Assembly: GCA_947594855.1 (NCBI GenBank)
Contig: CANQEL010000018.1
Coordinates: 1 to 49,512, forward strand
Direction: 5' to 3'
DNA: 49,512 nt
Source: an uncultured Lachnospiraceae bacterium
GTDB lineage: Bacteria; Bacillota; Clostridia; Lachnospirales; Lachnospiraceae
Shown here: positions 10,841-37,938 of the stretch, piece by piece
Layout: each line of letters starts with the position of its first letter
How positions within the stretch are numbered: position 1 is the first letter of the stretch
The notes under the pieces: model-generated
Told to the model about the DNA's origin: nothing
The model's input: the letters and a program-made list of their open reading frames with translations, nothing else
The model's database searches: none
Translations under genes and position numbers: made by a program

Positions 10841-11659
10841 ATGTTAAAAGATATTATATTAAAGGAGCTTGTTGAAAACGGCGAATCAGCTGTATCCGGA
10901 CAATCACTGGCAGAAAAATACGGGGTATCCCGTAATGCCGTATGGAAAGCTGTAAAGTCGCTTAAAGACGAAGGATATCTTATATCTTCAGTTACGAATA
11001 AAGGCTATAAAATGGTTTCAGATAATAATATATTGTCTGAGCAGGCTATAAGGGCAGGATTATGTGAAGATTACCGTGATATTCCCATATATGTTTTTGG
11101 CTGTATTGATTCTACAAATAATGAAGCAAAAAGGCGGCTTGCCGATAATAATGAAACAGGACATATGCTGATTGTTTCGGAAGAACAGAGCCGGGGCCGG
11201 GGCAGATACGGAAAGAGTTTTTATTCGCCACATGGGAGCGGAGTGTATATGTCACTTGGTTTCAGACTGTCAGGGCCTATAAATGAGCCTAAAAATTTTA
11301 CTAAAAAGGCAGCAGTTGCAGTTATAAGGGCAATTAAGAACATTACCGGCACTGAGTTATCCATAAAGGGAATTAACGATATATATTATAAAGGGAAAAA
11401 AGCCGGCGGAATACTTACAGAGGCTGTAGCGGGGCTTGAGACAGGTTACATCGAGCATGTTATAGCCGGTATAGGGATAAATCTGTTTACGGATTCATTT
11501 CCGGAGGATATAAGCGACAGGGCAATATCACTTGACGGGCTTAAACCTGCTAAAAACAAGCTTATTGCGCAGATTGTGAATGAAATAATACCATTGTATG
11601 AAATGCGCGATGATGAGGGTTATGCAAATGAATATGAAAAATATTATTTTAAAGAATAA
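10841..11659 (+). CDS. birA: Biotin-protein ligase / biotin repressor BirA, C-terminally short
   Basis: Activates biotin to biotinyl-AMP, transfers it to carboxylase carrier domains, and with its N-terminal helix-turn-helix can repress biotin genes. Residues 1-60 form the winged HTH (LAEKYGVSRNAVWKAVKSL). The catalytic domain has SRGRGRYGKSFYSP and a KKAGGIL loop carrying the ligase Lys. At 272 residues it is about 50 shorter than usual (E. coli 321) and stops right after NEYEKYYFKE, where the C-terminal SH3-like domain should begin. I saw no restoring frame downstream; an AT-rich 22-bp gap leads into the xylanase gene. A BirA-type operator lies at 16197-16228, before bioY. The call is firm; whether the short protein is fully active is open. 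Confidence 0.92.
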   Translation: MLKDIILKELVENGESAVSGQSLAEKYGVSRNAVWKAVKSLKDEGYLISSVTNKGYKMVSDNNILSEQAIRAGLCEDYRDIPIYVFGCIDSTNNEAKRRLADNNETGHMLIVSEEQSRGRGRYGKSFYSPHGSGVYMSLGFRLSGPINEPKNFTKKAAVAVIRAIKNITGTELSIKGINDIYYKGKKAGGILTEAVAGLETGYIEHVIAGIGINLFTDSFPEDISDRAISLDGLKPAKNKLIAQIVNEIIPLYEMRDDEGYANEYEKYYFKE

Positions 11660-11681
11660 AAATAAAAGGAGATTGGTGTTT

Positions 11682-19859: not shown

Positions 19860-19888
19860 TTGAATTGTATTTACGGGTACAATATTAT
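19860..19888 (+). promoter_or_regulatory. Promoter of the alpha-galactosidase gene
   Basis: TTGAAT (19860-19865) and TATTAT (19883-19888) separated by 17 bp, about 40 bp before the alpha-galactosidase start. No sugar-operator palindrome was recognised around it. Confidence 0.5.
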
Positions 19889-19928
19889 GTACAAAAGCAA
19901 TGTGAAAGAGAACAAAAGGAGATATTAC

Positions 19929-22094
19929 ATGGGTATTATATTTAATGAAAAAGAGAGTATTTTTAAACTTGATACGAAAAATACAAGTTATATTATGGGT
20001 ATTGAAGGTGACTTAGGACATCTTGTACATATTTACTATGGGAAAAAACTTAAAGGGGATAATAACCCTTCTCATATGCCGGTAATAAATTTCACCCATA
20101 AAATATGGTTTATGGACGGCAATGCAATGGAATATCCTGCAGACGGCTGTGGGGATTTCAGGGAGCATTGTATTGAAATAAGAACAGAAGATGGTTATTC
20201 CGCGCTTGAACCGGTGTATGTATCGCATAACATATATAAAGGAAAACCTTTGCTTCCGGGACTTCCGGCAACATTTGCAGATGAAAGCTGCTGCATGACT
20301 CTTGAGATAGTTATGCAGGATGCCCTGGCAGGGGTTGAAGCAGTTCTTCTGTATTCGGTATTTGAAGATACCGATGTAATTACAAGGAGTGTAAGAGTAA
20401 GAAATATCAGCGATAAAAATGTTACGCTGACTAAAGTATTGTCAGCATGTCTTGATATAGTAAATGATAATTATGAGGTTATTACCCTTCATGGTGCATG
20501 GGGAAGGGAAAGAAGCATACAGAGGCAGAAACTGGGTTATGGAAGATGTGGAGTATTTTCGGAAAGAGGGGTTTCGGGACACCAGAACCATCCGTTTATT
20601 GCTCTTGTTTCAGAGAATACTACGCAGAAAACCGGCGATGTTTATGCAATGAATTTTGTATATTCAGGTAATTATGAAGCGCAGTGCGAGCGTACAAGTA
20701 ATGATATGGTGCGTATGGTAATGGGTATTAATCCGTACAATTTTGCATGGAAGCTTGAAAGCGGACAGGAGTTTATCGCGCCGGAAGTTGTTATGGTATA
20801 TTCTGCGGAAGGACTTGGAAAGATGACAAGGACTTTCCATGATTTATACAGAAATCATCTTATAAGGGGAAAATATAAGGATATAAAAAGACCGATACTT
20901 ATTAACAACTGGGAAGCTACATATTTTGATTTTGATACGGAGAAACTTCTGCAGATAGCGAAAGAGGCAAAAAAACACGGAATAGAAATGCTTGTTGTTG
21001 ACGACGGGTGGTTCGGCAACAGGTTTGACGATAACAGGGCGCTTGGCGACTGGGTAGTGAATGAAGACAAAATAAAAGGCGGGCTTAAATACCTTGTTGA
21101 TGAGGTTAATAAGCTTGGAATGAAGTTCGGTATGTGGTTTGAACCCGAAATGATATGCCCTGATTCGGATTTGTACAGAGCGCATCCTGACTGGGCGTTT
21201 CATATACCCGGAAGGGAAGGCGCGCGCGCAAGAAACCAGATGGTTCTTGATATGACAAGAAAAGAAGTCCGTGATTATATATTTGACAGTATGGCGAAGG
21301 TGTTAAATTCCGCTAATGTGGAATATATTAAATGGGATATGAACAGAGCGCTTACCGATGTTGCAAGCTTGTCACTTCCTGCAGACAGGCAGGGAGAGAT
21401 ATATCACAGATATATGCTTGCAGTATATGAACTGCAGGAGAGGATAGTAAAAGAATTCCCTCATATTCTTCTCGAAAACTGTTCAAGCGGCGGCGGACGT
21501 TATGACCCCGGTATGTTATATTACAGCCCTCAGATATGGTGTTCTGACAATGCAGATGCAATAGACAGGCTTTCCATACAGGAAGGTACTGCGCTTATAT
21601 ATCCGTTGTCCACAATGGGCGCGCATGTTACCGACTGTCCTAACCATAGCGTAGGAAGGACTACACCGTTTGATACAAGAGGGATTGTTGCGCTTGCAGG
21701 AACATTCGGTTATGAACTTGATGTTACGAAAATTGATGAAAAGGAAAGAGAGCAGATATCCGAACAGACTAAGATGTTCCATAAATATAACGATCTTGTA
21801 AGGGAGGGCGATTATTACAGGCTGGCGTCATATTCGCTTAATAACAGATATGATTGTTATATGGTTGTATCAAAGGATAAAAAAGAGGCGCTTGTTACAT
21901 ACGTACAGGTAAAAACGGTAGCTGCAATACCGGCGCCGGTAATTAAGCTTGACGGATTATTAGAAGATGTTAAGTACTATATAGATGAACTTGAAAATAC
22001 AATGCCCGGAGACGTGCTTATGAATATGGGACTTCCTGTAAAGCCTGAACACGGAGATTATAAAGCAAGGCTGTATCACCTTATAGCAGAATAA
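19929..22094 (+). CDS. GH36 alpha-galactosidase
   Basis: Hydrolyses terminal alpha-1,6-galactose from raffinose-family sugars and galactomannan. The 721-residue protein has the normal family length: an N-terminal beta-sandwich, a (beta/alpha)8 barrel from about residue 320 and a C-terminal beta domain. Catalytic motifs are present: nucleophile Asp470 in YIKWDMNR and acid/base Asp540 in WCSDNADA, along with EMLVVDDGWFG, GMWFEPEMI and CSSGGGRYDPG. I start at 19929 (MGIIFNEKES) because AAAGGAGA lies 8-10 nt upstream; an earlier in-frame ATG has no such site. There is no signal peptide, so it acts in the cytosol on imported oligosaccharides. No transporter is adjacent. Confidence 0.95.
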   Translation: MGIIFNEKESIFKLDTKNTSYIMGIEGDLGHLVHIYYGKKLKGDNNPSHMPVINFTHKIWFMDGNAMEYPADGCGDFREHCIEIRTEDGYSALEPVYVSHNIYKGKPLLPGLPATFADESCCMTLEIVMQDALAGVEAVLLYSVFEDTDVITRSVRVRNISDKNVTLTKVLSACLDIVNDNYEVITLHGAWGRERSIQRQKLGYGRCGVFSERGVSGHQNHPFIALVSENTTQKTGDVYAMNFVYSGNYEAQCERTSNDMVRMVMGINPYNFAWKLESGQEFIAPEVVMVYSAEGLGKMTRTFHDLYRNHLIRGKYKDIKRPILINNWEATYFDFDTEKLLQIAKEAKKHGIEMLVVDDGWFGNRFDDNRALGDWVVNEDKIKGGLKYLVDEVNKLGMKFGMWFEPEMICPDSDLYRAHPDWAFHIPGREGARARNQMVLDMTRKEVRDYIFDSMAKVLNSANVEYIKWDMNRALTDVASLSLPADRQGEIYHRYMLAVYELQERIVKEFPHILLENCSSGGGRYDPGMLYYSPQIWCSDNADAIDRLSIQEGTALIYPLSTMGAHVTDCPNHSVGRTTPFDTRGIVALAGTFGYELDVTKIDEKEREQISEQTKMFHKYNDLVREGDYYRLASYSLNNRYDCYMVVSKDKKEALVTYVQVKTVAAIPAPVIKLDGLLEDVKYYIDELENTMPGDVLMNMGLPVKPEHGDYKARLYHLIAE

Positions 22095-25084: not shown

Positions 25085-26843
25085 TCTTATATTCTTCAAA
25101 GTATTTCCTGAATTCAGCGTTGTCTATTTCCTTAACAGAGTTATCTTTAAGAGCGTTAAGGTATTCGTGAGTATCAAATACGTCTGACTGAAGTTCAATC
25201 ATTGCTACCGCAATGTTGGAACAATAGTCGGCGATTCTCTCATAATTGGTAAGCAGGTCATTGAATATGAAGCCCTGGTTAAGAGTACAGTGACCTGACT
25301 GTACACGGTGTATATGGCGCGTTTTGAGTTCATAACACAGATGGTCTACAACCTCTTCAAGAGGTTCTACCTTGTATGCTTTGCTCATATCGTTTTCAAT
25401 ATACCCGTCTATGGCAAGGTCAAGTATATCGTTTACGGCGCGCTTTAATACTTTGAGTTCGCGCACGGCGTCATTTGAAAACTTGATTTTCTTCTCATGG
25501 ATTTCATTTGCAAGATCCGCAATATTTACGGCGTGGTCGCCTATACGCTCAAAGTCGCCGAGAGTATGAAGTATAAGTGAAACTTCCCTTGTCTGGCTGT
25601 CTTTAAGCTCTACACCAGTAATTTTTACAAGATATGTGCCGAGCTTGTCCTCGTATTTGTCGATGATTTCTTCTTTAGAATATACTTTATTGTAATGTTT
25701 TTTGTCATAATCAGAAAGAAGGGATATTGAACGCGCTATATTTTTGCGGGCTTTCTTAGCCATTGAGCATACAGCCTGACGGCTCTGCTCTATGGCAAGC
25801 GCAGGGTGCGCGATAAAACGTTCTTCAAGCTGGTCGATTTCCTGGATATCTTCAAGCTCTTCCGGATTTTCTTTGAATATAAAGCATACGAGCTGTTCGA
25901 GCTTTCCTATAAACGGACTCAGAACAAGCATCGTTGCAGTACGGAATATTGTATTTATGAGGGCGATTGATATAGGGCTCATAGGCATATCCATAAAGTC
26001 AAAATGTACGAATGCATTAACCGTATAGAATATAGTTGCCCATATTATCGTGCCGAACAAATCGTTAAACAGATATATGAAAGCTGTCCTCTTTCCATTT
26101 GTATTGGTTCCGATTGCCGAAAGCAGTACAGGCGCAGAAGCTCCAATACCCATACCCATGATGATGGGAAGCGCAGTAGAAAAGTTGACTGCCCCGGTGA
26201 TGGTAAGGGCCTGAAGTATTCCGACAGAAGCGGAAGCACTCTGAAGGACTGCTGTTATAAGGATACCTATAAGGATTCCAAGAAGCGGATTGGAGAACGC
26301 TGTAAGAGTGCTCATAAATGCTTCGCTTTCCTTAAGGGGAGAAACGGCAGCGCTCATGTTCTGCATACCGAACATAAGGACAGAAAATCCGAGGAATATG
26401 TTTCCGAGATGCCGCATCGTCATCTTGCTGCATACCATTCTCAGTATTATACCAACGATGGCTATAATAGCGGACAGTGTTGCAGTCGAAAGGATACTTG
26501 CAACGCCGCTTGCATCATTATTGATATAAGACAGGCACAATATCCAGCCGGTTATACTTGTTCCTATATTGGCGCCCATTATTATTCCTATTGCCTGGGC
26601 GACTTTCATCATACCCGAATTTACGAAACCGACAACCATAACAGTAGTAGCGGAGGAACTCTGGATAACTGCAGTAACGGCAGTTCCGAGAAGTATTCCT
26701 TTTAAAGGGTTGTTGGTAAGTTTCCAAAGTATAATTTCCAGTTTGTTGCCGGCAACTTTTTTAAGTCCGTCGCCCATTAAGGACATTCCGAACAAAAACA
26801 GGGCAACGCCTCCAAGTAAAGAAATCACATTAGATATTCCCAT
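25068..26843 (-). CDS. Na+/phosphate cotransporter family protein with C-terminal PhoU domain
   Basis: A 591-residue membrane protein of the Na/Pi-II (NptA-like) family. The N-terminal half has the duplicated signature: GTAVTAVIQSSSATTVMVVG near residues 53-72 and ITAVLQSASASVGILQALTI near 195-214, with about eight transmembrane segments in all. From about residue 345 there is a PhoU-like four-helix domain (LGDFERIGDHAVNIADLANE near 436-455, plus LTNYERIADYCSNIAVAMIE), as in family members that sense or gate phosphate uptake. GGAGG precedes the ATG. It is convergent with the serpin and divergent from the ABC exporter pair. Substrate is probably phosphate, though some members lack shown transport. 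Confidence 0.92.
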   Translation of the reverse strand: MGISNVISLLGGVALFLFGMSLMGDGLKKVAGNKLEIILWKLTNNPLKGILLGTAVTAVIQSSSATTVMVVGFVNSGMMKVAQAIGIIMGANIGTSITGWILCLSYINNDASGVASILSTATLSAIIAIVGIILRMVCSKMTMRHLGNIFLGFSVLMFGMQNMSAAVSPLKESEAFMSTLTAFSNPLLGILIGILITAVLQSASASVGILQALTITGAVNFSTALPIIMGMGIGASAPVLLSAIGTNTNGKRTAFIYLFNDLFGTIIWATIFYTVNAFVHFDFMDMPMSPISIALINTIFRTATMLVLSPFIGKLEQLVCFIFKENPEELEDIQEIDQLEERFIAHPALAIEQSRQAVCSMAKKARKNIARSISLLSDYDKKHYNKVYSKEEIIDKYEDKLGTYLVKITGVELKDSQTREVSLILHTLGDFERIGDHAVNIADLANEIHEKKIKFSNDAVRELKVLKRAVNDILDLAIDGYIENDMSKAYKVEPLEEVVDHLCYELKTRHIHRVQSGHCTLNQGFIFNDLLTNYERIADYCSNIAVAMIELQSDVFDTHEYLNALKDNSVKEIDNAEFRKYFEEYKTRYSI

Positions 26844-27056
26844 TCTATTTTACCTCCAATTCCAATAATAACAGATTTGATATAAATGTAAAGTCGTTAA
26901 ATGTAGAAAAGGATACCAAATAATACCTATATTATAAAAAAATAACCTACGCCAATTGTTTTATAATACAATTTTAATGGTAAATTAGTAAATATACGTT
27001 AAAATTAAAATGTTTGTGTGCGTATTTTGACAAAATGAGAGAAGAAGGCATAAAAG

Positions 27057-28763
27057 ATGAGATTAATGTTGGCATACATGAAACCATACAAAGGCAAAGT
27101 GACACTAACGGTATTTCTTAAATTTGCCGCGGTGATACTGGAACTTCTTATACCATATATGCTTGAATATATGATTGATGAAGCTGCGCCCAAAAAGCAG
27201 ATAGTACACGTGATAATAGCAGGACTGGTTATGGTTATACTTGCTGTTATGGTACGAAGCATGAATGTTGCAGCAAACCGTATGGCGACGCTTACTGCAA
27301 GGGATTCTATATATACGCTCAGAAGAGACCTTTTCAAAAAAACAATATATCTTAAGGGAGCGGATTTTGACGAAATTTCCCTTCCATCACTTATTTCAAG
27401 GATGACGTCTGATTCTTATAACGTACAGAGTTTTATAGGTATGATACAGAGAATAGGAGTGCGTGCGCCGATAATGCTTACCGGAGGGCTTTTGGTAGCG
27501 GGGATAATGGAAATACGTCTGTCGGTTGTGCTTTTATGCATGATACCTGTTATGATGTTTGTTACGGTATTCGTTTCCTCCAAAGGTATTCCGGTATTCA
27601 GAAATGTACAGGCTAAGCTTGATGATGTTGTAAGGGTTCTGAGGGAAAATATCACCGGAGTCAGGATAATCAGGGCTCTTTCAAAATCTGAATATGAAAA
27701 AAGGCGTTTCTTTAATGCAAATAAAAACCTTACGGATGCGGATATACGCGCAGGAATGATGATGGCGCTGCCAAATCCTCTTATGAACCTGCTTTTAAAT
27801 ATAGGTTTTACTTTAATAGTAGTTATAGGCGCATACAGGGTTAATGCGGGCGATATGAAACCGGGCGTGATTCTTGCATTCCTTACATATTTCAATATGA
27901 TACTTCAGGCGGTTATGGGTATTAACCGTATATTTATACAATATTCAAAGGCGGGCGCTTCAGCAGACAGGATAGCGCTTGTGCTTGAGGTGCCTGAGAA
28001 TGACCGGCAGACGGATAACGGATGTGAGAGCGGGGATTATGATGAAGATACGGTTATTGAATTTGATAATGTAAGTTTCTGCTATGATAATAACAGCGCC
28101 GAAAGCCTTAAAAATATAAGCTTTAAAGTCAAAAAAGGTGAATCGCTTGGAATTATCGGTTCTACGGGCTGTGGAAAAACAACGCTTCTTAACCTTTTGC
28201 TTGCATTTTATGATGTAAGCGTGGGAACCATAAGACTGCATGGAAAAGATATAAGGAATATGCCGCTGCATGAGATACGGAAGAAATTCGGAATAGTTTT
28301 TCAGAATGATACGATATTTAATGATACGATATATGAAAATATTAACTTTGGACGCGGCATAAGTACGGATAAGGCGAAGGAGGCCGCAGAAACTGCAATG
28401 ATAGGTTCATTTGACATGGATTACCCTGTTGCGATAAAAGGAATGAACTTAAGCGGCGGACAGAGACAGAGGCTTCTTATTGCGAGGGCACTTGCAGGAG
28501 ACTCGGAAATTATAGTGTTTGATGATTCTTCGAGCGCGCTTGATTATAAAACCGATGCGGTCATAAGGAACAATATTAAGAAAAAATACCGTGACAGCAT
28601 AAGGATTACAGTTGCACAGAGAGTAAGTTCAGTTAAGGATATGACTAATATACTTGTACTTGAAGAGGGAGAGATGATAGGCTTTGGAACACATGAATCG
28701 CTTCTTAAAGAGTGCGAAGTATACAAAGATATATATATGTCGCAGATGGGAGCGTTTGAATAA
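27057..28763 (+). CDS. ABC exporter half-transporter A (degenerate ATPase site)
   Basis: A 568-residue ABC exporter with six transmembrane helices (about 1-310) and a nucleotide-binding domain (about 335-568). Walker A is GSTGCGKTT and the signature is the canonical LSGGQRQRL. The catalytic Glu after Walker B is Asp (VFDDSSSALD), and the switch His is Gln (VAQRVSS). This is the pattern of the degenerate-site partner in heterodimeric exporters such as TM287/288 and BmrCD. The next gene, 19 bp downstream, is the complementary half. Substrate is unknown; drugs, lipids or peptides are possible. The start has GAAGG about 11 nt upstream. Confidence 0.92.
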   Translation: MRLMLAYMKPYKGKVTLTVFLKFAAVILELLIPYMLEYMIDEAAPKKQIVHVIIAGLVMVILAVMVRSMNVAANRMATLTARDSIYTLRRDLFKKTIYLKGADFDEISLPSLISRMTSDSYNVQSFIGMIQRIGVRAPIMLTGGLLVAGIMEIRLSVVLLCMIPVMMFVTVFVSSKGIPVFRNVQAKLDDVVRVLRENITGVRIIRALSKSEYEKRRFFNANKNLTDADIRAGMMMALPNPLMNLLLNIGFTLIVVIGAYRVNAGDMKPGVILAFLTYFNMILQAVMGINRIFIQYSKAGASADRIALVLEVPENDRQTDNGCESGDYDEDTVIEFDNVSFCYDNNSAESLKNISFKVKKGESLGIIGSTGCGKTTLLNLLLAFYDVSVGTIRLHGKDIRNMPLHEIRKKFGIVFQNDTIFNDTIYENINFGRGISTDKAKEAAETAMIGSFDMDYPVAIKGMNLSGGQRQRLLIARALAGDSEIIVFDDSSSALDYKTDAVIRNNIKKKYRDSIRITVAQRVSSVKDMTNILVLEEGEMIGFGTHESLLKECEVYKDIYMSQMGAFE

Positions 28764-28782
28764 CAGAAAGAGGTGAAGAGGG

Positions 28783-30552
28783 ATGCCGCCATTCAGCACG
28801 AAAACAGATAAGCCTAAAGACGCAAAAGGAACGGTAAGGCGTATTATAAAGTATATATTGAAGTATAAGGAGCTTACTGCAACGGCAGTATTTCTTGCGG
28901 TATTTTCCAATATATTTTCCCTTCTCGGACCAAAACTTTCAGGCAATGCAATAGATGTAATAGCCGAAGGTGAAGGACTTGTGAATTTTAATAAAGTTTA
29001 TTACTATGCAGGACTCATGATATTGTTTTACATACTGTCGGTAATAATGTCCTATGTACTTTCATCGGTTATGATTATTATTGGGCGCCGTATAGCAAAA
29101 CAGATGAGAACGGAAGTATTTGATAAGCTTACGCGTATTCCTGTAGGATATTATGATACCAATCAGACGGGAGATATAATAAGCAGGGTTTCATACGATA
29201 TTGACGTAATCAATACATCGCTGTCTGCTGATGTGGTACAGATAGTTTCAAGTTTTATTACGGTGGTATGTTCGTTTGCAATGATGCTTTACATAAGCCC
29301 CATACTGGTTATAAGTACTCTTGTTACTATTCCGTTTTCAATTATATATACGAGGTATATGACAAGAAAGACAAGGCCGTTATTTGCAAAACGCTCCAAA
29401 AAATACGGTGAACTTAACGGATTTACGGAAGAGATGTTTTCAGGGCATAAAACAATACAGGCATATGCTAATGAAGAAGGCGTTATAGCAGGTTTTGATA
29501 ATATAAATACCGAAGCTGCAGATGCATTTTATGATGCTGATTATTACGGAACCATTATCGGTCCGGGCGTGGGATTTATTAATAACCTGTCGCTGGCGCT
29601 TGTAGCAATATCCGGAGCGTTTTTTTACCTGTATAATATGGTTTCTATAGGACAGATATCTTCATTTGTCCTGTATTCAAGAAAATTTTCAGGCCCTATA
29701 AATGAGATTGCTAATATGTATAATGAACTTATGTCGGCGCTTGCCGCCGCCGAAAGGGTATTTAAGCTTCTTTCCGAAAAAGAAGAATCGGCAGATGCAA
29801 AGGATGCGGCCGCGCTTAGCGATATAAAAGGTGAAGTGTGCGTAAAAAATGTTACATTTGGATATGATAAGAGAAAGCCTGTACTTAAGGATATGAATAT
29901 AACCGCAAAGCCGGGAAACGTCATAGCGATAGTGGGAGCAACAGGAGCGGGAAAGACAACCATTATCAATCTTCTGATGAGATTTTATGATGTGGATAAA
30001 GGCGCGATTCTTATTGATGGAAAAGATATAAGGAACGTTACAAGGGAATCGCTTAGAAAGGCATATGTAATGGTGCTTCAGGACACATGGGTTTTTACCG
30101 GTACGATAAAGGAGAACATTGCATATGCAAAAGAAGATGCTTCCGATGAAGAAATAATAAGGGCGGCGAAGGCGGCAAAGCTTCATTCTTATATTATGAG
30201 CCAGCCTAAAGGCTATGATACTGTTATTACGGAAGACGGGAATAACATATCTAAAGGACAGAAGCAGCTCATTACCATTGCAAGGGCTATGCTTGCCGAT
30301 GCTTCGATGCTTATACTTGACGAGGCAACATCAAACGTAGATACGAGGACTGAGAAGGCTATATCAGAAGCAATGATTGCACTTATGAAAGGGCGCACGT
30401 GCTTTGTAATTGCGCACAGGCTGTCAACTATAAAAGGCGCTGACTGTATCCTTGTCGTAAATAATGGCGCTATAGCGGAAAAGGGAACGCATGATACTCT
30501 CATAAAACAGAAAGGGTTATACTATAATATGTATATATCCCAGTATGATTAA
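28783..30552 (+). CDS. ABC exporter half-transporter B (catalytic partner)
   Basis: A 589-residue ABC exporter partner of the preceding gene. The membrane domain spans about residues 20-330. The nucleotide-binding domain has Walker A GATGAGKTT, a full Walker B with Glu (LILDEATSNVD), the switch His (VIAHRLST), but an altered signature ISKGQKQ. Together with gene A, the dimer has one complete ATPase site (this Walker region plus A's LSGGQ) and one degenerate site. Starting 19 bp after gene A with AAAGAGGTGA as ribosome site, it should be cotranscribed with it. No adjacent regulator or obvious substrate gene is seen. Confidence 0.93.
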   Translation: MPPFSTKTDKPKDAKGTVRRIIKYILKYKELTATAVFLAVFSNIFSLLGPKLSGNAIDVIAEGEGLVNFNKVYYYAGLMILFYILSVIMSYVLSSVMIIIGRRIAKQMRTEVFDKLTRIPVGYYDTNQTGDIISRVSYDIDVINTSLSADVVQIVSSFITVVCSFAMMLYISPILVISTLVTIPFSIIYTRYMTRKTRPLFAKRSKKYGELNGFTEEMFSGHKTIQAYANEEGVIAGFDNINTEAADAFYDADYYGTIIGPGVGFINNLSLALVAISGAFFYLYNMVSIGQISSFVLYSRKFSGPINEIANMYNELMSALAAAERVFKLLSEKEESADAKDAAALSDIKGEVCVKNVTFGYDKRKPVLKDMNITAKPGNVIAIVGATGAGKTTIINLLMRFYDVDKGAILIDGKDIRNVTRESLRKAYVMVLQDTWVFTGTIKENIAYAKEDASDEEIIRAAKAAKLHSYIMSQPKGYDTVITEDGNNISKGQKQLITIARAMLADASMLILDEATSNVDTRTEKAISEAMIALMKGRTCFVIAHRLSTIKGADCILVVNNGAIAEKGTHDTLIKQKGLYYNMYISQYD

Positions 30553-30658
30553 TTATGCAGACACAAAAATGACATGTTTTTATTAAAAATTTTACACGAA
30601 TCTGGATAAAATATCCATTAATATATACATATATATTTTTATATGGAGGAGTGGCTTC

Positions 30659-32755
30659 ATGGCTATTAAAGCGTTGATTGAGAAAATTAAGCACAGTTTT
30701 TTGTATACTAAAGCAATTACTTATCTTGATGATGAGTATCTTGACAGCCGTTTTCAGCGCTATCTTAGGAAGATAACAGAGGATAACAGGATTGCATTCA
30801 CCGACACAATCGAAGATATGGCTAACATCCATGTAAAGACACTTGCAAGGGAATGTGTTATTAACGAGCTTGCGGATTCAGGTGAATATAATCTGAAAAA
30901 TATCCTTGTTGTCAAAAATCCATATGGCTATGTTCCTCTTTCTGCCATGGCAATATTTAACACCGACAAGCCTTTAAGCGCAAAGGTATGGGTGGAAAGC
31001 AGTGAGGATATACTTGTTAAGGGAGAACTTCCTGCGGCTACCAGCCATAGAATACCTATATTCGGACTGTTTGCAGATACTGTAAACAAAATCCATATAG
31101 TACTGTCATTAGGAAACAAGAAAGTGAAGCATCTGCGGTTTGATATACAGACGGAGCCGCTTCCTGACGATATGCAAAAGCTTGCGAAAGTATTTTTGAA
31201 AAAGGGAGCTCCCGCATATCCGTTTTATTATATATCAGGGGTGGATGTATGGTTCCCTACAATAATAGATTCCAAAGGAAATGTAAGATATTATATTAAA
31301 AAGCCAAGTAAGAATTACGGGGTATTCCACCTTTCAGACGGCCTGTTCCTTCATATGGACAGAGGTGTTTTGAGACCTGGGTTTGGCGTGCCTCATTCTA
31401 CAGTCGCATATGAGAATGACCTGTGGGGCAGGGTAAGACGTACACTTAATGTAAAGAATGCGCTTCATCATGACGTATATGAGATGAGTCCGCACGGCAA
31501 TCTCCTTGTTGCAACAAGCTCGCTTGTAAAGTATTGTGAAGATGTAGTTGCCGAGCTTGACAGGGTGACAGGTAAAATTGTAAAGAAAGTTGAAATGGAT
31601 GATATAATTACAGAGCCGTCTGTTAAAGACAGCGCAGACTGGGCTCATATGAATACCGTATCGTACCAGCGGCAGGACAACTGTGTAATCGTATGCTTAC
31701 GAAACCTTCACAGTGTGCTTAAGATAGACTGGGCAACAGGCAAACTTATATGGATACTTGGAGACCCGTTTTTCTGGAAAGGCACAACAATGGAGTCATA
31801 TGTGCTGAAGCCTGAACATGACGATATTAAATGGTTTTATCAGGCTCATGCAAGTTATCAGATGGACAGAAAACCTGATGATGATCCGGATGTATCGAGG
31901 ATAATGCTGTATGACAATCATTACCAAAGCAGAAGGCAGACAGACAATTTTGATAATGATGATTGTTCATATGGCAATGTATATTTTATAAATGAAAAGA
32001 CGAAGACGGTAAAACTTCATAAAAGATTTGTCAGTGAAAAATCTACAGTCCGCTCCAATGCAGTATTTTCAAGAGAAAAAGACCGGTTCTTAATGATGAG
32101 CGGCTGTCTTGATAAAAAGTATAAGAAAATGCCGGCTCTTATATATGATTATTCGTATTCTGATGGCGAGCTGCAATATCTTATAGGAATAAAAAATAAA
32201 TTTTACAGGGCGTATCCTTTTGAATTTAACTTTAGTTCACTTGCGGAAAAAATAAGTACAACTCCGGTTGCATTTGGAGAGATTGAATATCCTGAAAAGA
32301 CTGAGCCTATAGATGTTGCAGGCGCCCGCACTGTTCCTCCGAGACCTGAAGGCGCAAACAGGATGGGTAAACGTGATGGCAAGATGAAGACACGTAAACA
32401 GAAAGAAATTGAGTTTGAACGTATGCTTAACGGCAGAAAATGGGAAGAACTGGATCATACTGAGAGAATTGCAAGAGCGGATTTCAGATTATTTGGAAAT
32501 ACGTTATATATGTATGGTGTAGACCACATTATATCGCATCTGTATCTGGTAGGTGAACACAATACTTATGTTGTTGACTATACGGGAACTAAACAGGAAA
32601 TTCTGGCTATAACATATAATTATGGATATTATATGACTATTGGTATTGACAGACTTGAAAAAGACAGATATCATCTCTATATACGGTGTCTTGGAGAGTT
32701 ATATGACACAGAAAAAGAATTTGAGATTAACAATCAGGAGGAGAATAATGAGTAA
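30659..32755 (+). CDS. Cytoplasmic arylsulfotransferase (ASST family)
   Basis: A 698-residue protein of the bacterial arylsulfotransferase fold (six-bladed propeller). Residues aligning by motif with the E. coli AssT active site are present: His270/His271 (LHHDVYEM), His330 ([10 protein letters not shown]), Arg348 ([10 protein letters not shown]) and the sulfated-histidine position His397 (FYQAHASYQ). The segment [13 protein letters not shown] is also family-typical. E. coli AssT is periplasmic and uses aryl sulfates, not PAPS. This one has no signal peptide and so should be cytoplasmic. Its 3' end overlaps cysD by 8 bp, coupling it to PAPS-forming genes. GGAGGA sits 8-9 nt before the ATG. 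Acceptor, and whether PAPS is the donor, are unknown. Confidence 0.85.
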
Positions 32756-33647
32756 CTTATCACAGCTTGACAGGCTGGAAGCGGAAGCAATATATATCAT
32801 GCGTGAAGTTGTTGCCGAATGTGAGAAGCCTGTAATGCTCTATTCCATTGGAAAAGACAGCTCGGTAATGCTGAGGCTGGCGCAGAAGGCATTTTATCCG
32901 GAGAAGCCGCCGTTTCCGCTTATGCATATTGATACTACATGGAAGTTTCATGAAATGATTGAATTCCGTGACAGGATGGCTAAGGAAACAGGGATGGAAA
33001 TGATAGTATACACCAACGAAGAAGGTGTAAAGAAAGGGATTAATCCTTTTGATCATGGTTCTATATATACTGATGTAATGAAAACCCAGGCGCTTAAACA
33101 GGCGCTTGATAAATACGGATTCACGGCTGCGTTTGGCGGCGGAAGGCGTGACGAGGAAAAATCGCGCGCAAAAGAAAGAATATTTTCATTCCGTAACAGT
33201 AAACATGCCTGGGAGCCTAAAAACCAGAGACCTGAGATGTGGAAGCTGTATAATGCGCAGATAATAAAGGGTGAAAGCATAAGGGTATTTCCTCTTTCAA
33301 ACTGGACAGAGAGGGATATATGGCAGTATATAGAGCGTGAGAATATACCTATTGTTCCGCTGTATTTTGCAAAAGAAAGGCCTGTTGTATACCGTGACGG
33401 TAATATTATCATGGTTGATGATGACAGAATGAAACTGAGAGAGGGAGAAAAAGTCCAAATGAAAAAGGTACGTTTCCGTACACTTGGCTGTTATCCTCTT
33501 ACGGGTGGAATTGAATCAGATGCGGAGACCCTTCCGGAGATTATAGAAGAAACACTTAGCGCAGTATCCTCTGAGAGGACAAGCAGGGTTATAGATTATG
33601 AGGGAGCTGCAAGTATGGAAAGAAGAAAAAGGGAGGGATACTTCTAA
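32748..33647 (+). CDS. cysD: Sulfate adenylyltransferase subunit 2 (CysD)
   Basis: With the GTPase CysN it makes adenosine 5'-phosphosulfate (APS) from ATP and sulfate. The 299-residue protein has the CysD form of the PP-loop ([15 protein letters not shown]), followed by [37 protein letters not shown] and the C-terminal [19 protein letters not shown] start at 32748 ([11 protein letters not shown]) because AGGAGGAG is 6-8 nt upstream; it overlaps the sulfotransferase stop by 8 bp and the next gene by 1 bp. Length is normal. The genes for APS/PAPS reduction are not in view. Confidence 0.96.
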
Positions 33648-35464
33648 TGAAAAGCCTTCTTAAATTTATTACATGCGGAAGTGTTGATGACGGAAAGTCA
33701 ACGCTTATAGGACATATGCTTTATGATGCGAAGCTTATATTTGCGGACCAGAAGAAAGCGCTTGAAATGGACAGTAAAATAGGCAGCAATGACGGTGAGC
33801 CTGATTACTCGCTTCTTCTTGACGGACTTATGGCAGAGCGTGAGCAGGGAATTACTATAGATGTTGCTTACAGATATTTTACAACTGAAAAGAGAAGTTT
33901 TATAGTAGCCGACACGCCGGGCCATGAAGAGTATACAAGGAATATGGCAGTTGGCGCATCTTTTGCCGAGCTTGCGATACTTCTTACGGATGCTTCAAAG
34001 GGTGTGCTTATACAGACCAGGAGACATTTAAGAATATGTGCCCTTATGGGAATTAAGCATTTCGTATTTGTAATTAACAAGATGGATATTGTTAATTATG
34101 ATAAACGTGTATACGATAAGATTAAGGCCGATATAATGGAACTTATGAAAGATATAGATTCGGAAAGCATATATGTTATTCCGGTATCGGCAACCAAAGG
34201 CGATAATATTACTGAGAAATCAGATAAGACACCGTGGTATGACGGTGTGCCTCTTCTTGCATATCTTGAAGATATTGAGACAGAAAAGGAAAATACAGAC
34301 AAAGATTTTGTTATGCCTATTCAAAGAGTGTGCAGGCCTGACTATAAGTTCAGGGGATTCCAGGGACAGATTGAGGAAGGCATAATAAAACCGGGAGATA
34401 CAATTAAATCACTTCCAAGCGGCGAAACGGCTGTTGTGAAGGAAGTATATGTATGTGATAAACAGGTAGAGGAAGCTGTAAGCGGACAGCCTGTAACACT
34501 CGTAATTGACAGGGAAATGGACATATCAAGGGGATGTGTTCTTGTAAATAATGATGATAAGGCAATAGTTGCAAACCTGTTCAGAAGTGAAGTGCTGTGG
34601 ATGGATGATAATGAACTTCAGACCGGAAAGAGCTATTATCTTAAACTTGGAACGAAGAAGATTCTGGCTTCGGTAACGAGAGTATGCCACAGTATTGATA
34701 TCAATTCAGGTAAACGCAAGTCATGTGAGACATTAAAGAAGAATGAAATAGGCGTATGTGAGATTATGACTGCTGATAAGATAGTAATGTCTTCATTTAC
34801 GAAGATTAATTCTCTGGGATGTTTCATACTTATTGACAGTGAGACCAATATGACTTCTGCATGCGGAATTGTGAAGCGTGAACTTAAGCGTGAAGATAAT
34901 GTCGTATGGCAGAACATGGATATTACGAGGCAGATACGTGAAAAAGAGCTTGGACAGGAGGCTAAGACAATATGGTTTACCGGTCTTAGCGGCGCAGGTA
35001 AATCAACACTTGCAAATGCCCTTGAGAAGAGGCTTCTTATGCTTGGAAAGCATACAATGATACTTGATGGCGACAATATAAGGCATGGCCTGAACAGTAA
35101 TCTTGGATTCGGGGAAGAAGACCGTGCTGAGAATATAAGAAGAATTGCAGAAGCAGCGCGTCTGTTAAATGATGCGGGAATTATAGTTATGGTATCATGT
35201 ATAGCGCCTTATGAAAGTGACAGAAAGAATGCTGCGGATATACTGGGAGAGGCATTTAATGAAGTATATGTTTCTACTCCGAAAGAGGAGTGTGCACGAC
35301 GTGATGTTAAGGGGCTGTATGCAAAGGCTGAAAGCAATGAGATTCTTAACTTTACGGGAGTGAACAGCCCATATGAGGCTCCGCGTCATGCAGATATTGT
35401 TATAGATACTACCGGAAAAGAAGTTAATGATTGTGTAGATGAGCTGATGAAACTGTTCATTTAA
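33647..35464 (+). CDS. cysNC: CysN-CysC fusion: sulfate adenylyltransferase GTPase / APS kinase
   Basis: A 605-residue bifunctional enzyme. Residues about 1-420 are the EF-Tu-like GTPase CysN (CGSVDDGKSTLIGHML, DTPGHEEYTRNMAVG, NKMDIV), which powers CysD. Residues about 430-605 are APS kinase (GLSGAGKSTLANALEKRL, LDGDNIRHGLNSNLGF), which phosphorylates APS to PAPS, the universal sulfate donor. Fusion of these two domains is known from rhizobial NodQ and others. It starts on the last base of the cysD stop (TAATG). With the sulfotransferase and CysD it forms a self-contained PAPS supply unit. Confidence 0.96.
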   Translation: MKSLLKFITCGSVDDGKSTLIGHMLYDAKLIFADQKKALEMDSKIGSNDGEPDYSLLLDGLMAEREQGITIDVAYRYFTTEKRSFIVADTPGHEEYTRNMAVGASFAELAILLTDASKGVLIQTRRHLRICALMGIKHFVFVINKMDIVNYDKRVYDKIKADIMELMKDIDSESIYVIPVSATKGDNITEKSDKTPWYDGVPLLAYLEDIETEKENTDKDFVMPIQRVCRPDYKFRGFQGQIEEGIIKPGDTIKSLPSGETAVVKEVYVCDKQVEEAVSGQPVTLVIDREMDISRGCVLVNNDDKAIVANLFRSEVLWMDDNELQTGKSYYLKLGTKKILASVTRVCHSIDINSGKRKSCETLKKNEIGVCEIMTADKIVMSSFTKINSLGCFILIDSETNMTSACGIVKRELKREDNVVWQNMDITRQIREKELGQEAKTIWFTGLSGAGKSTLANALEKRLLMLGKHTMILDGDNIRHGLNSNLGFGEEDRAENIRRIAEAARLLNDAGIIVMVSCIAPYESDRKNAADILGEAFNEVYVSTPKEECARRDVKGLYAKAESNEILNFTGVNSPYEAPRHADIVIDTTGKEVNDCVDELMKLFI

Positions 35465-35473
35465 GGGGATATT

Positions 35474-36196
35474 ATGAGAATAATATTTATAAGGCATGGA
35501 GACCCGGATTATTCTATTGATTCACTTACCGAAAAAGGGTGGCGTGAAGCAAAGCTGCTTGCTGAGCGTGTAAGTAAATGGGATGTTTCCGCATTTTATT
35601 GTTCACCGCTTGGCAGGGCGAGGGCCACGGCATCCTGCACGCTTAATAAGGTTGGCAGAACGGCAACGGAATATCCGTGGCTCCGGGAGTTTGAAGGACA
35701 TGTGGTAAATCCGGCTACAGGACACGATTATATATGCTGGGATTTCATGCCGGATTACTGGACTGAGATGGAAGATATGTATGATAGGGATAACTGGGCG
35801 GTGTCTAAGCTCATGTCTTCAAGCTCAAATGACATTAACCATGAGTGGCAGAGCGTGTGCAATGGTATTGATGGAATACTTGCCGGATACGGGTACATAC
35901 GAAAAGGAAGATATTATACGTTTGATAAACATAGTGACGATACAATAGTTATCTTTTGTCATTTTGGCGTAACAATGGTAATGCTGGCTCATATTCTCGG
36001 AATATCGGCTCCGGTGCTGTGGCATGGAACATTCCTTGCGCCAACTTCGGTTACTATACTTAACAGTGAGGAGAGACAGCCCGGCAGGGCGTATTTCAGA
36101 AGTCAGGTAATAGGTGATACCAGCCATCTTTCATTTGCGGGAGAGCCGGTATCTGATTCAGGATATTTTTCTGAAATATTTAATGAGGTCTGGTAA
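35474..36196 (+). CDS. Histidine phosphatase family protein
   Basis: A 240-residue protein of the phosphoglycerate-mutase-like superfamily. The N-terminal RHG motif (IFIRHGDPDYS, catalytic His8) and the second His (IFCHFGVTMVML) are present, with an Arg in YCSPLGRARATA. The acceptor is not evident from sequence: small-molecule phosphatase is more likely than a mutase. It starts 9 bp after cysNC and ends 2 bp before the thioesterase gene, so it belongs to the sulfation operon; removal of the 3'-phosphate from PAP is a conceivable but untested role. Confidence 0.88.
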   Translation: MRIIFIRHGDPDYSIDSLTEKGWREAKLLAERVSKWDVSAFYCSPLGRARATASCTLNKVGRTATEYPWLREFEGHVVNPATGHDYICWDFMPDYWTEMEDMYDRDNWAVSKLMSSSSNDINHEWQSVCNGIDGILAGYGYIRKGRYYTFDKHSDDTIVIFCHFGVTMVMLAHILGISAPVLWHGTFLAPTSVTILNSEERQPGRAYFRSQVIGDTSHLSFAGEPVSDSGYFSEIFNEVW

Positions 36197-36198
36197 AT

Positions 36199-36933
36199 AT
36201 GTATACATTTAATGCAAGAATAAGATACAGTGAGGTTGACAGGAATGGATTTCTGTCGCCTCTTGCTCTTTTGGACTATTTTCAGGATTGTGCAATATTT
36301 CATTCCGAGGATGTCGGAGTAGGTCTTGAATATCTTAATGAACGTAATATTGCCTGGGTTCTTAATTCATGGCAGATAGATATTAATGAAATGCCGAAAT
36401 TCGGAAACGAAGTTCTGGTATCTACATTTGCATACGATTTTAAGGGATATTTTGGCTATAGGAATTTCCTGCTTAGGGATATGGATGGAAAGGTACTTGC
36501 ACTTGCCAATTCAATATGGTCTCTTATAAATATGGAAAGAATGAAACCGCAGCTTATAAGTGAAGAGATGATATCAGCTTACGGAATATATGACAGGCTG
36601 GATATGGAATATACCGACAGGAAGCTCAGGGTATATAAAGACGCCGGTATATGTACTTCAGATAAGATTATTATAGGAGTACACAATCTCGATACTAATA
36701 ATCATGTCAATAACAGTCAGTATGTTCATATGGCCTCAGATTACATACCTGCAGACTGTCTCAAAAATCGTAACAACAATATAAAAAGGATACGCGCAGA
36801 ATACAGAAAGCAGGCATTTCTTGGTGATGTTATGATTCCGTATGTGTGCGCGAATAATAATAAGATTCTTATTATGTTTAATGATGAAGATAAAAAGACT
36901 TATGCAAATGTTGAATTTACTTTATCATTATGA
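36199..36933 (+). CDS. Acyl-ACP thioesterase
   Basis: A 244-residue double hot-dog protein of the acyl-ACP thioesterase family (FatA/FatB relatives in Clostridia). The first hot-dog holds IRYSEVDRNGFLSPLALLDYFQDCA; the second begins near residue 155 with the catalytic-region motif HNLDTNNHVNNSQYVHMA (Asn and His). It hydrolyses acyl-ACP to free fatty acid. It starts 2 bp after the phosphatase, the last gene of the sulfotransferase operon, and its stop overlaps the convergent LCP gene by 6 bp. Chain-length preference cannot be read. A link to sulfation, for example a sulfated lipid, is speculation. Confidence 0.88.
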   Translation: MYTFNARIRYSEVDRNGFLSPLALLDYFQDCAIFHSEDVGVGLEYLNERNIAWVLNSWQIDINEMPKFGNEVLVSTFAYDFKGYFGYRNFLLRDMDGKVLALANSIWSLINMERMKPQLISEEMISAYGIYDRLDMEYTDRKLRVYKDAGICTSDKIIIGVHNLDTNNHVNNSQYVHMASDYIPADCLKNRNNNIKRIRAEYRKQAFLGDVMIPYVCANNNKILIMFNDEDKKTYANVEFTLSL

Positions 36934-37938
36934 CTTTGCTGATATTTGCGCGCTTATGTCTTTTACAGTCTGTGAAGGTTCATATTTTTTAGTGCCGAAA
37001 AGGTAATTGTGGAGTTTTGTTACATTTGATGAAAGTGAAGTGCTTACTACCACGGAGGCTTTATTTATTGTCATTACTTTATTGTCAAATGGAAATCCTG
37101 TCTGTTCGTCTATTGAATAGAACGGGAAGGACATAGCAAGTCCCATAAATTCAGTGTTTTTCATTCCGGTGCATATCTGTGGCAGAATAGCATCAGCGGC
37201 TTTGATGAGCTTTACCGGGTTAGTATGCTTTGCCTTTTTGAGCATTGCTTCAATGACTGTTCTCTGGCGGCTGGCTCTTGTGAAATCGCCGCCTTTTGTG
37301 TAGCGCACACGTGAATAACCGGTTGCCTGTACTCCTGTGAGGGTCTGCTTTCCCGGTTTTTTTATTTTAGTCCATTCTTTATTGTTGATATTAGCTACAT
37401 CTTTGGCGTATCTGTTTACGTAATCAAGTTCTTCTTCCGTAATATCTATTTCGATTCCGCCAAGGGCGTCAACGGCGTCTGTAACGGCGCTGAAATTCAC
37501 GGTTACAAAGTCGCGTATATTCAGGTCAAAGTTTCTGTTAATGGTTTCTACTGCAAGCTTTGGACCGCCGTATGCATAGGCGTGGTTAAGTTTGGTATAT
37601 CCATGCTCAGGAATATATACATAGGTATCTCTGTATATAGATACAAGCTTAATCTTTTTTGTCTTTTTGTTGATGCTTGCAATGACTATTGAGTCGCTTC
37701 TGGTATTTTTTGTGAGGTCATTTTCTCTTGAATCCACACCAAAAAGCGCAATATTAGTGTAGTCGGCAATATTGTCGTCGTTTATCTGGTTCATGTAAAT
37801 ATCGTTATCGTTCCACTCGGCGCTTTTAAGTTTGCCAAATACAATTACAATTATAGCGATAAAAGCAGCAATAAGTATGAGTATTATTTCTATGATAAGA
37901 AGTATTTTCCCTGCTTTATGGCGCTTTTTTGAAGCCAT
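36928..37938 (-). CDS. LytR-CpsA-Psr (LCP) family cell-wall ligase
   Basis: Attaches polyprenyl-linked glycopolymers (teichoic acid, capsule) to peptidoglycan. The 336-residue protein has a short cytoplasmic N-terminus, a membrane segment at about residues 11-33, then the LCP domain: NIALFGVDSR, TRSDSIVIASIN with catalytic-site Arg/Asp, VSIYRDTYVYIP, KLNHAYAYGG and RYTKGGDFTRASRQ. No C-terminal extra domain. It lies 12 bp downstream of the glycosyltransferase on the same strand, so the pair probably builds and attaches one surface polymer. It converges on the thioesterase with a 6-bp overlap and no clear terminator. Confidence 0.94.
   Translation of the reverse strand: MASKKRHKAGKILLIIEIILILIAAFIAIIVIVFGKLKSAEWNDNDIYMNQINDDNIADYTNIALFGVDSRENDLTKNTRSDSIVIASINKKTKKIKLVSIYRDTYVYIPEHGYTKLNHAYAYGGPKLAVETINRNFDLNIRDFVTVNFSAVTDAVDALGGIEIDITEEELDYVNRYAKDVANINNKEWTKIKKPGKQTLTGVQATGYSRVRYTKGGDFTRASRQRTVIEAMLKKAKHTNPVKLIKAADAILPQICTGMKNTEFMGLAMSFPFYSIDEQTGFPFDNKVMTINKASVVVSTSLSSNVTKLHNYLFGTKKYEPSQTVKDISAQISAKS

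What the first reader, a model, noticed from the sequence alone, without database searches (positions are those of the whole stretch)
30659..36933. Arylsulfotransferase translationally coupled to a PAPS-making CysD/CysNC pair, with phosphatase and thioesterase
Seen: five genes with overlaps or gaps of 2-9 bp (sulfotransferase overlaps cysD by 8 bp, cysD overlaps cysNC by 1 bp). Known: CysD plus CysN-CysC make PAPS; ASST-family enzymes characterised in Enterobacteria use aryl sulfates and sit in the periplasm. Here the ASST has no signal peptide, keeps the active-site His/Arg set, and there is no PAPS reductase or sulfite reductase in the operon. Inference: a cytoplasmic, PAPS-linked sulfation pathway, perhaps making a sulfated phenol, glycan or lipid (hence the thioesterase), with the histidine phosphatase possibly clearing PAP. 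This is my leading candidate for an undescribed system.
Basis: partly seen in the sequence, partly recalled or inferred. Interest (0 to 1): 0.78.

Follow-up and report, generated by a model that had tools for sequence, protein, structure and literature searches.

The report
Cytosolic arylsulfotransferase tied to PAPS synthesis
Some gut bacteria appear to have taken an enzyme that elsewhere swaps sulfate between phenols, kept it inside the cell and coupled it to the cell's own activated sulfate, which would give this enzyme family a natural sulfate donor; nothing has been tested in the laboratory.

Summary
The five-gene block is real and at the stated coordinates. Its core, arylsulfotransferase (ASST) + CysD + CysNC, is not a chance assembly. 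In a 397-genome survey of the window's bacterial family, every genome with a cytosolic, active-site-intact member of this ASST clade has CysD (9 of 9, against 71 of 388 others). In 6 of the 9, in five genera, the ASST is adjacent to or colinear with CysD. All 17 cytosolic proteins read form one clade. Fourteen of them keep the five EcASST active-site residues mapped here, and carry clade-specific arginines: R425 (14 of 14) and R465 (13 of 14), the latter at the EcASST Thr501 position. The window genome has no sulfite reductase or CysH hit, and no hit to two Pfam sulfotransferase families or to a third, unassigned family (ST7) that fills this slot in related loci. Best reading: a cytoplasmic sulfation pathway with the ASST consuming PAPS, probably directly. 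The phosphatase and thioesterase are not conserved and not core. The acceptor is unknown. A relay through an unseen PAPS-dependent sulfotransferase, as for caprazamycin, is the main rival. Nothing was assayed.

The parts
30659..32755 (+). Cytosolic ASST-family protein, 698 aa: Ig-like N domain plus ASST propeller region. H271, H330, N332, R348, H397 kept; R425 and R465 clade-specific
32748..33647 (+). CysD, ATP sulfurylase small subunit
   Evidence: TIGR02039, 492 bits, cut-off 396.6
33647..35464 (+). CysNC, ATP sulfurylase GTPase subunit fused to APS kinase (kinase domain about residues 440-587)
   Evidence: NF004035; PF01583 6.9e-60
35474..36196 (+). Histidine phosphatase (branch 1); same operon by spacing, not conserved in G270; accessory or unrelated
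36199..36933 (+). Acyl-ACP-thioesterase-like protein; same operon by spacing, not conserved in G270; accessory or unrelated
27057..28763 (+). ABC exporter half, upstream, same strand; kept near the ASST in the genus (window, L004, L005, G270), role unknown
   Evidence: assigned by similarity to its partner, blast cluster c14
28783..30552 (+). ABC exporter half (ABC_membrane, ABC_tran), 106 bp before the ASST gene; kept in the genus, TrkA and TrkH lie between in G270

Best explanation
The block encodes a cytoplasmic sulfation pathway. CysD and CysN make APS, the fused APS kinase makes PAPS, and the cytosolic ASST-fold enzyme takes the sulfuryl group from PAPS, most likely onto His397, and passes it to an acceptor made in the cell, perhaps an envelope glycan. 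The clade probably arose once from exported ASSTs, losing the signal and gaining R425 and R465 (the EcASST Thr501 position), which I infer bind the phosphates of the nucleotide donor. Shown from sequence: the genes, the linkage, the co-occurrence, the clade, the residue changes, and the absence of the competing PAPS users that were searched for. Inferred: PAPS as direct donor, the role of the arginines, the acceptor. I put about 0.8 on the ASST being a sulfotransferase step of the PAPS pathway, direct or relayed; the number below is for PAPS as direct donor.
For: CysD in 9 of 9 genomes with an intact cytosolic member against 71 of 388 others, Fisher 3.8e-7. Adjacent or colinear in 6 of the 9, with the ASST upstream, downstream or divergent. 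In the part of the survey added after the clade was defined, 4 of 6 genomes with clade or exported-relative hits have the ASST beside CysD (3 intact, 1 degenerate), and the other 2 have exported forms. APS kinase domain fused to CysN in 31 of 32 loci without AprA (the 32nd has a separate CysC) and in 0 of 18 loci with AprA. No PF00685 and no ST7 hit in 8 of 8 genomes with an intact linked ASST. No NIR_SIR in G000, G108, G097. One clade of 17. R425 and R465. R465 aligns with EcASST Thr501, H397 with His436.
Against: The tested AST of Eubacterium A-44 did not use PAPS, and the one donor study excludes PAPS (review passages). Three cytosolic clade members have lost catalytic residues, and two of them sit in CysD operons (G192, G286). 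Three of the nine intact genomes have the intact ASST elsewhere than beside CysD (G029, G097, G192). G082 has a NIR_SIR hit and its ASST is about 5.5 kb from CysD. One AprBA genome (G058) also lacks NIR_SIR, so that absence alone proves little. R425 has Lys in one exported relative and R465 is Thr in G097; canonical ASSTs have Ile at that column, so it is not invariant in my alignment. The nine genomes share ancestry of the gene, and the label was set after seeing the first 200 genomes, so the p-value is descriptive. No structure: the model failed.
Confidence: 0.52

Rival explanations
1. Relay: another, PAPS-dependent sulfotransferase makes a small aryl sulfate and the ASST moves that sulfate to the final acceptor, as Cpz8 and Cpz4 do for caprazamycin.
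For: The only PAPS-to-ASST route described in what I read (passages of PMC6731281; review passage). It explains the ASST-type active site and the gene linkage.
Against: PF00685 0 of 8 and ST7 0 of 8 genomes with an intact linked ASST; PF13469 0 in the 3 of 8 tested. No such gene was clustered in the linked loci read. Other sulfotransferase families (PF10364, PF03567, PF09037, PF06990) were not searched in the genomes. The residue changes at the donor site are not expected.
Confidence: 0.23
2. The ASST uses aryl sulfates taken up from the gut, and CysD/CysNC serve a separate PAPS user; the genes are together because they feed the same product or respond to the same signal.
For: Known ASTs use aryl sulfates (review). 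Canonical ASSTs without a signal exist in genomes without CysD.
Against: No other PAPS user was found in G000 or G108 among the families searched. The cytosolic clade, unlike canonical ASSTs, was never seen without CysD (9 of 9 against 0 of 11). Clade-specific active-site changes.
Confidence: 0.13
3. In this setting the ASST-like protein is a partner, sensor or scaffold of the PAPS synthase and not a sulfotransferase.
For: Members with lost catalytic residues sit in CysD operons in G192 and G286, and both genomes have ST7 genes elsewhere.
Against: 14 of 17 cytosolic members keep H271, H330, N332, R348 and H397, which suggests selection for catalysis; the 8 genomes with an intact linked ASST had no PF00685 or ST7 hit.
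Confidence: 0.08
4. Ordinary sulfate assimilation genes beside an unrelated ASST by chance.
For: CysD and CysN also serve assimilation; 18 of the 50 typed loci are of that kind.
Against: No NIR_SIR in G000; PF01507 finds only CysD and a DUF3440 PP-loop protein; no AprA in the window block; the linkage recurs in five genera.
Confidence: 0.02

Closest known systems
EcASST and other bacterial PAPS-independent aryl sulfotransferases (PF05935)
   Same: Same Pfam family and Ig-like N domain; H271, H330, N332, R348, H397 match H252, H356, N358, R374, H436
   Different: No export signal seen, gene coupled to PAPS synthesis, Thr501 position is Arg, extra R425. Known ASTs use aryl sulfates and the tested one not PAPS (PMC13426309)
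Caprazamycin relay Cpz8/Cpz4 (Streptomyces)
   Same: An ASST-type enzyme fed, through another enzyme, by PAPS
   Different: There a PAPS-dependent Cpz8 makes the aryl sulfate donor (passages of PMC6731281); here no such partner was found among the families searched
Bacteroides thetaiotaomicron BT_0411-BT_0416 cholesterol sulfation cluster
   Same: PAPS genes next to a sulfotransferase in a gut bacterium
   Different: BT_0416 is a PAPS-using cholesterol sulfotransferase, assayed with PAPS (passages of PMC9417993); that it is of the SULT type is recalled. Here the enzyme is ASST-type and unassayed
CysD-CysNC loci of other Lachnospiraceae with PF00685, PF13469, PF10364 or ST7 genes
   Same: Same CysD and fused CysNC, no AprBA, sulfotransferase slot beside them
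   Different: The slot is filled by an unrelated sulfotransferase or putative one; ST7 has no Pfam assignment

Membership tests
ASST / bacterial aryl sulfotransferase (PF05935) | Profile match to PF05935 with Arylsulfotran_N | tested here: met
   167.7 bits (cut-off 24.2) and 43.8 bits (cut-off 24.2)
ASST / bacterial aryl sulfotransferase (PF05935) | Sulfuryl-accepting His and coordinating His/His/Asn/Arg | tested here: met
   H397, H271, H330, N332, R348 align with H436, H252, H356, N358, R374 of 3elq (numbering counted by me)
ASST / bacterial aryl sulfotransferase (PF05935) | Thr501 in the active site | tested here: not met
   Arg465 in the window; Arg in 13 of 14 intact cytosolic, Thr in 11 of 12 exported, Ile in 7 of 7 canonical
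ASST / bacterial aryl sulfotransferase (PF05935) | Transfer from aryl sulfates, no use of PAPS | not testable with these tools
   needs enzyme assay
PAPS-dependent sulfotransferase of the SULT type (PF00685/PF13469) | Sulfotransferase domain profile | tested here: not met
   ASST has only PF05935, PF17425 and PF14269 matches. It may still work like one
PAPS-dependent sulfation pathway | ATP sulfurylase and APS kinase present | tested here: met
   CysD, CysN-CysC
PAPS-dependent sulfation pathway | A sulfotransferase shown to use the PAPS | not testable with these tools
   only genomic association
Assimilatory sulfate reduction | APS or PAPS reductase and sulfite reductase in the genome | tested here: not met
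   PF01077 0 hits in G000; PF01507 only CysD and a DUF3440 protein. AprA was not searched genome-wide
Cpz8/Cpz4-type relay | A second, PAPS-dependent sulfotransferase in the genome | tested here: inconclusive
   PF00685, PF13469 and ST7 absent from G000; other families not searched

The most novel reading that the evidence does not exclude
A second, unrelated fold does PAPS-dependent sulfation: an ASST-type enzyme turned by evolution from outside aryl sulfates to cytosolic PAPS, working by ping-pong through sulfo-His397, with R425 and R465 (in place of Thr501) as the donor switch, and feeding an envelope polymer in gut Lachnospiraceae.
Probability: 0.45. Interest if true: 0.82.

Novelty: new variant of a known kind. 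Interest (0 to 1): 0.65.

Why it matters
The review read here says that no natural substrate of the bacterial ASTs has been identified in more than 40 years, apart from crediting Cpz4 with a role in antibiotic making, and that the one donor study excludes PAPS (PMC13426309 passages). A clade tied to PAPS synthesis by gene order, co-occurrence and active-site change offers a natural donor and a two-residue test of donor choice. If PAPS is used directly, a propeller enzyme with a sulfo-histidine would join the P-loop sulfotransferases as users of PAPS. It also points to a sulfation capacity in gut Lachnospiraceae that I found no description of in the searches named.

Tried and rejected
Chance assembly: rejected. 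Sulfate assimilation: rejected for the window genome as far as NIR_SIR and PF01507 tell. Cytosolic location alone as a sign of PAPS use: rejected, since canonical 620-aa ASSTs also show no signal and their genomes lack CysD. Histidine phosphatase as PAP phosphatase and thioesterase as lipid clue: not supported. Neighbours of the unlinked cytosolic ASSTs as a clue to the acceptor: no pattern seen. AlphaFold model from three rows: mean pLDDT 31.6, discarded, no fold search run. A paper for PDB 9KF4/9KF6: none found. CysD tree to separate reductive from sulfation loci: the two are interleaved, at least three changes forced by starred branches. Class-wide survey of 391 genomes: outside the family strong hits only in two genomes of one genus (G555, G458), with lipoprotein-like N-termini and no CysD in the stretch read; weaker hits were fetched but only L199 of L199-L201 was looked at. 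Papers on PAPS-linked ASSTs: searches (open-licence PMC only) listed none that I recognised as describing this; three listed papers were opened, in passages or sections.
Full report
WHAT IS THERE. The window is contig C18 of a 2.48-Mb genome, 97.6% complete. Its nearest named relatives are uncultured Lachnospiraceae MAGs. The five ORFs sit as described. Pfam and NCBIfam assign ASST (PF05935, PF17425), CysD, CysN-CysC, a branch-1 histidine phosphatase and an acyl-ACP-thioesterase-like protein; NCBIfam has no model for the ASST. Promoter- and terminator-like sites in 26800-37100 are no more frequent than in shuffles (30 against a mean of 34.7; 7 against 6.0), so operon limits cannot be read from them.

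THE CORE. L004 carries all five genes (ASST 90%, CysD 99%, CysNC 98%, phosphatase 93%, thioesterase 83% identity); L005 has ASST, CysD and the start of CysNC before its contig ends. G270, the second species of the genus, has ABC-ABC-TrkA-TrkH-ASST-CysD-CysNC and then a gene that I read by eye as rpoB, with no phosphatase or thioesterase. So the core is ASST-CysD-CysNC.

SURVEY, FIRST 200 GENOMES. PF05935 rings in 37 of 200; CysD in 57 of 200 at E 0.001 and 41 of 200 over its cut-off. I took the 41 and three divergent ones (G108, G166, G021), 44 genomes, and read 46 CysD loci from them plus L004 and L005, 48 in all. L116 and L138 are cut inside CysN; with four loci added later (L179, L180, L184, L186) 50 CysN genes were typed. 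Of 18 loci with AprA, 0 have an APS kinase domain; of 32 without AprA, 31 have it fused to CysN and the 32nd (L144) has a separate CysC in the locus. Of these 32, 15 carry a sulfotransferase or putative one: 5 of PF00685/PF13469 type, 2 of PF10364 type (that PF10364 proteins are sulfotransferases is recalled), and 8 with a family I call ST7, which has no sulfotransferase hit in Pfam for the two members scanned and which I judge by its N-terminal motif and place. Ten carry an ASST (8 intact, 2 degenerate). Seven carry neither among the clustered families; in 6 of those 7 genomes a hit lies elsewhere (G130, G159, G103, G109, G091, G168), in G184 none. So in this family a fused APS kinase goes with sulfation-like loci and AprBA with reduction, and the ASST sits where a sulfotransferase is expected. 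The two kinds are interleaved in the CysD tree.

SURVEY, 397 GENOMES. A profile of cytosolic ASSTs (A3) splits sharply: members at 482 bits or more, the rest at 257 or less. Beyond the first 200, members were found in G270, G330, G248, G286, G346, G204. In 4 of these 6 an ASST lies next to CysD (G270, G330, G286 on the same strand, G248 divergent); G286's is degenerate; G346 and G204 have exported forms. CysD in the same 397: 75 over cut-off, to which I add 5 divergent ones (G166, G345, G108, G343, G021). Genomes with an intact cytosolic member: G000, G270, G108, G330, G248, G082, G029, G192, G097. All 9 have CysD against 71 of 388 others (Fisher 3.8e-7). Controls, same call (46): canonical ASST genomes 0 of 11 (p 0.13 by itself; the 11 were chosen by score and frame length, five of them read as sequence), exported relatives only 2 of 5 (p 0.27; G179 and G346, both with AprBA), all 67 ASST-hit genomes 19 of 67 against 61 of 330 (p 0.09), ASST hits without the cytosolic clade 9 of 57 (p 0.48). 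The association is thus with this clade, not with ASSTs at large. The p-value is descriptive: the label was set after the first 200 genomes, and the genes share ancestry. The later genomes and the varied gene orders (ASST before CysD in G000, G270, G330; after CysC in G108; divergent in G248; after CysD-CysNC-ChrA and two regulators, about 5.5 kb from CysD, in G082) are the better argument. For G029 and G097 the CysD contigs end inside CysN, so the type is open, though no AprA precedes CysD.

OTHER PAPS USERS. In the 44 genomes Sulfotransfer_3 rings in 9, Sulfotransfer_1 in 9, ST7 in 13, NIR_SIR in 31. G000, G108 and G097 have none of the four; G082 has NIR_SIR only; G192 has NIR_SIR and ST7 pieces; G029 has NIR_SIR and one weak Sulfotransfer_3. 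One AprBA genome (G058) also lacks NIR_SIR, so that absence is not proof by itself. Sulfotransfer_1 rings in 0 of 19 genomes with clade members or exported relatives, ST7 in 1 of 13 (G286). Together, 0 of 8 genomes with an intact linked ASST (G000, G270, G108, G330, G248, G082 and those of L004 and L005) have Sulfotransfer_1 or ST7, while both genomes whose only linked member is degenerate (G192, G286) have ST7. Sulfotransfer_3 and NIR_SIR were tested in 3 of those 8 (Sulfotransfer_3 0 of 3; NIR_SIR in G082 only). In G000 PF01507 finds CysD and a DUF3440 PP-loop protein, not CysH.

THE ENZYME. By hydropathy the cytosolic members have no N-terminal hydrophobic stretch like that of the exported relatives or of the first halves of fused tandems; G270_C15 and G029_C47 are called with over-long starts, and I judged them from an inner Met. 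In a 49-protein tree all 17 cytosolic proteins (8 linked, 6 unlinked, 3 degenerate) are one clade, support 100/98; its neighbours are exported ASSTs, with weaker forks (83-91) and a midpoint root, and the canonical group is separate. Profile A2 aligns with PDB 3elq at E 6.3e-47. By my count H271, H330, N332, R348 and H397 match H252, H356, N358, R374 and H436, which the review names with Thr501 as the active site (section 6). Fourteen of 17 keep all five; G192_C136, G286_C2 and G248_C13 have lost three or more. Arg or Lys in at least 90% of the 14 and at most 10% of 12 exported relatives occurs at two columns, R425 and R465; the reverse at none; His393 of the exported forms (11 of 12) is Phe in 12 of 14 (columns with many gaps skipped; three of the 14 are close relatives). 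R425: Arg 14 of 14, 0 of 12 exported (one Lys), 0 of 7 canonical. R465: 13 of 14 (Thr in G097), 0 of 12 (11 Thr, 1 Tyr), 0 of 7 (Ile). R465 is the Thr501 position; R425 lies four residues after the DNH motif. I infer a changed donor site that suits a phosphorylated donor. The structure model failed, so distances are unknown.

MECHANISM. Sulfate and ATP give APS (CysD, CysN), APS kinase gives PAPS, the ASST takes the sulfuryl group, by analogy with EcASST on His397, and hands it on; PAP is cleared by CysQ where present (TIGR01331 over cut-off in L061), in the window by an unknown enzyme. The first steps follow from established families; the ASST step is inferred. The acceptor is open. Weak hints of envelope polymers: a CDP-glycerol glycerophosphotransferase and a cytidylyltransferase beside the G248 ASST, a cytidylyltransferase and an ABC-2 pair beside the G097 CysD, and LytR-CpsA-Psr and sugar-transferase genes convergent with the window block, the last also in L004 but not in G270.

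LIMITS. No assay; draft genomes; AprA, CysQ and several sulfotransferase families were not searched in G000; donor exclusion of PAPS is reported for another AST. Papers: PMC13426309 was seen in passages, section 5 part 2 and section 6; PMC9417993 and PMC6731281 in passages; the EcASST and caprazamycin originals were not seen.

Noticed in passing
L061:9046-10971, L186:9021-10940, L187:9188-11158: ASST-like proteins of the cytosolic clade with a lost active site, each after a gene I read by eye as the RNA-binding protein Tex; two are first in CysD-CysNC-CysQ operons.
   Followed up: partly
L123, L125, L126, L127, L133, L136, L142 and L109, beside CysD-CysNC: A 370-420-aa family (ST7, alignment A1) with a P-loop-like N-terminus and no sulfotransferase hit in Pfam for the two members scanned; in 13 of 44 CysD genomes. 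Possibly an uncatalogued sulfotransferase family.
   Followed up: partly
50 CysD loci: APS kinase domain and AprBA exclude each other in these CysD loci (31 of 32 fused without AprA, 0 of 18 with AprA), while the CysD tree is interleaved: repeated switching between sulfation and reduction.
   Followed up: yes
L184:4682-8952 and L138:88-2119: Teichoic-acid-like genes (cytidylyltransferase, CDP-glycerol glycerophosphotransferase, ABC-2 exporter) next to the ASST of G248 and the CysD of G097.
   Followed up: partly
L179:11407-14297 and L061:14571-16618: TrkH-type potassium transporter genes, with a TrkA-type gene (Pfam-checked in L179, by eye in L061), beside the ASST-PAPS genes in two genera.
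   Followed up: no
L049:44-4546, L183:7461-11846: Fused tandem ASSTs of about 1,460-1,500 aa with an exported-type N-terminus (G136, G204).
   Followed up: no
G000 contig C8, L003:1009-2328: PAPS-reductase-like PP-loop protein with DUF3440, not CysH.
   Followed up: partly
window 11598-16166: 1,522-aa protein with Ig-like, esterase and glycosyl hydrolase family 10 domains; a melibiase-type protein lies at 19860-22094.
   Followed up: no
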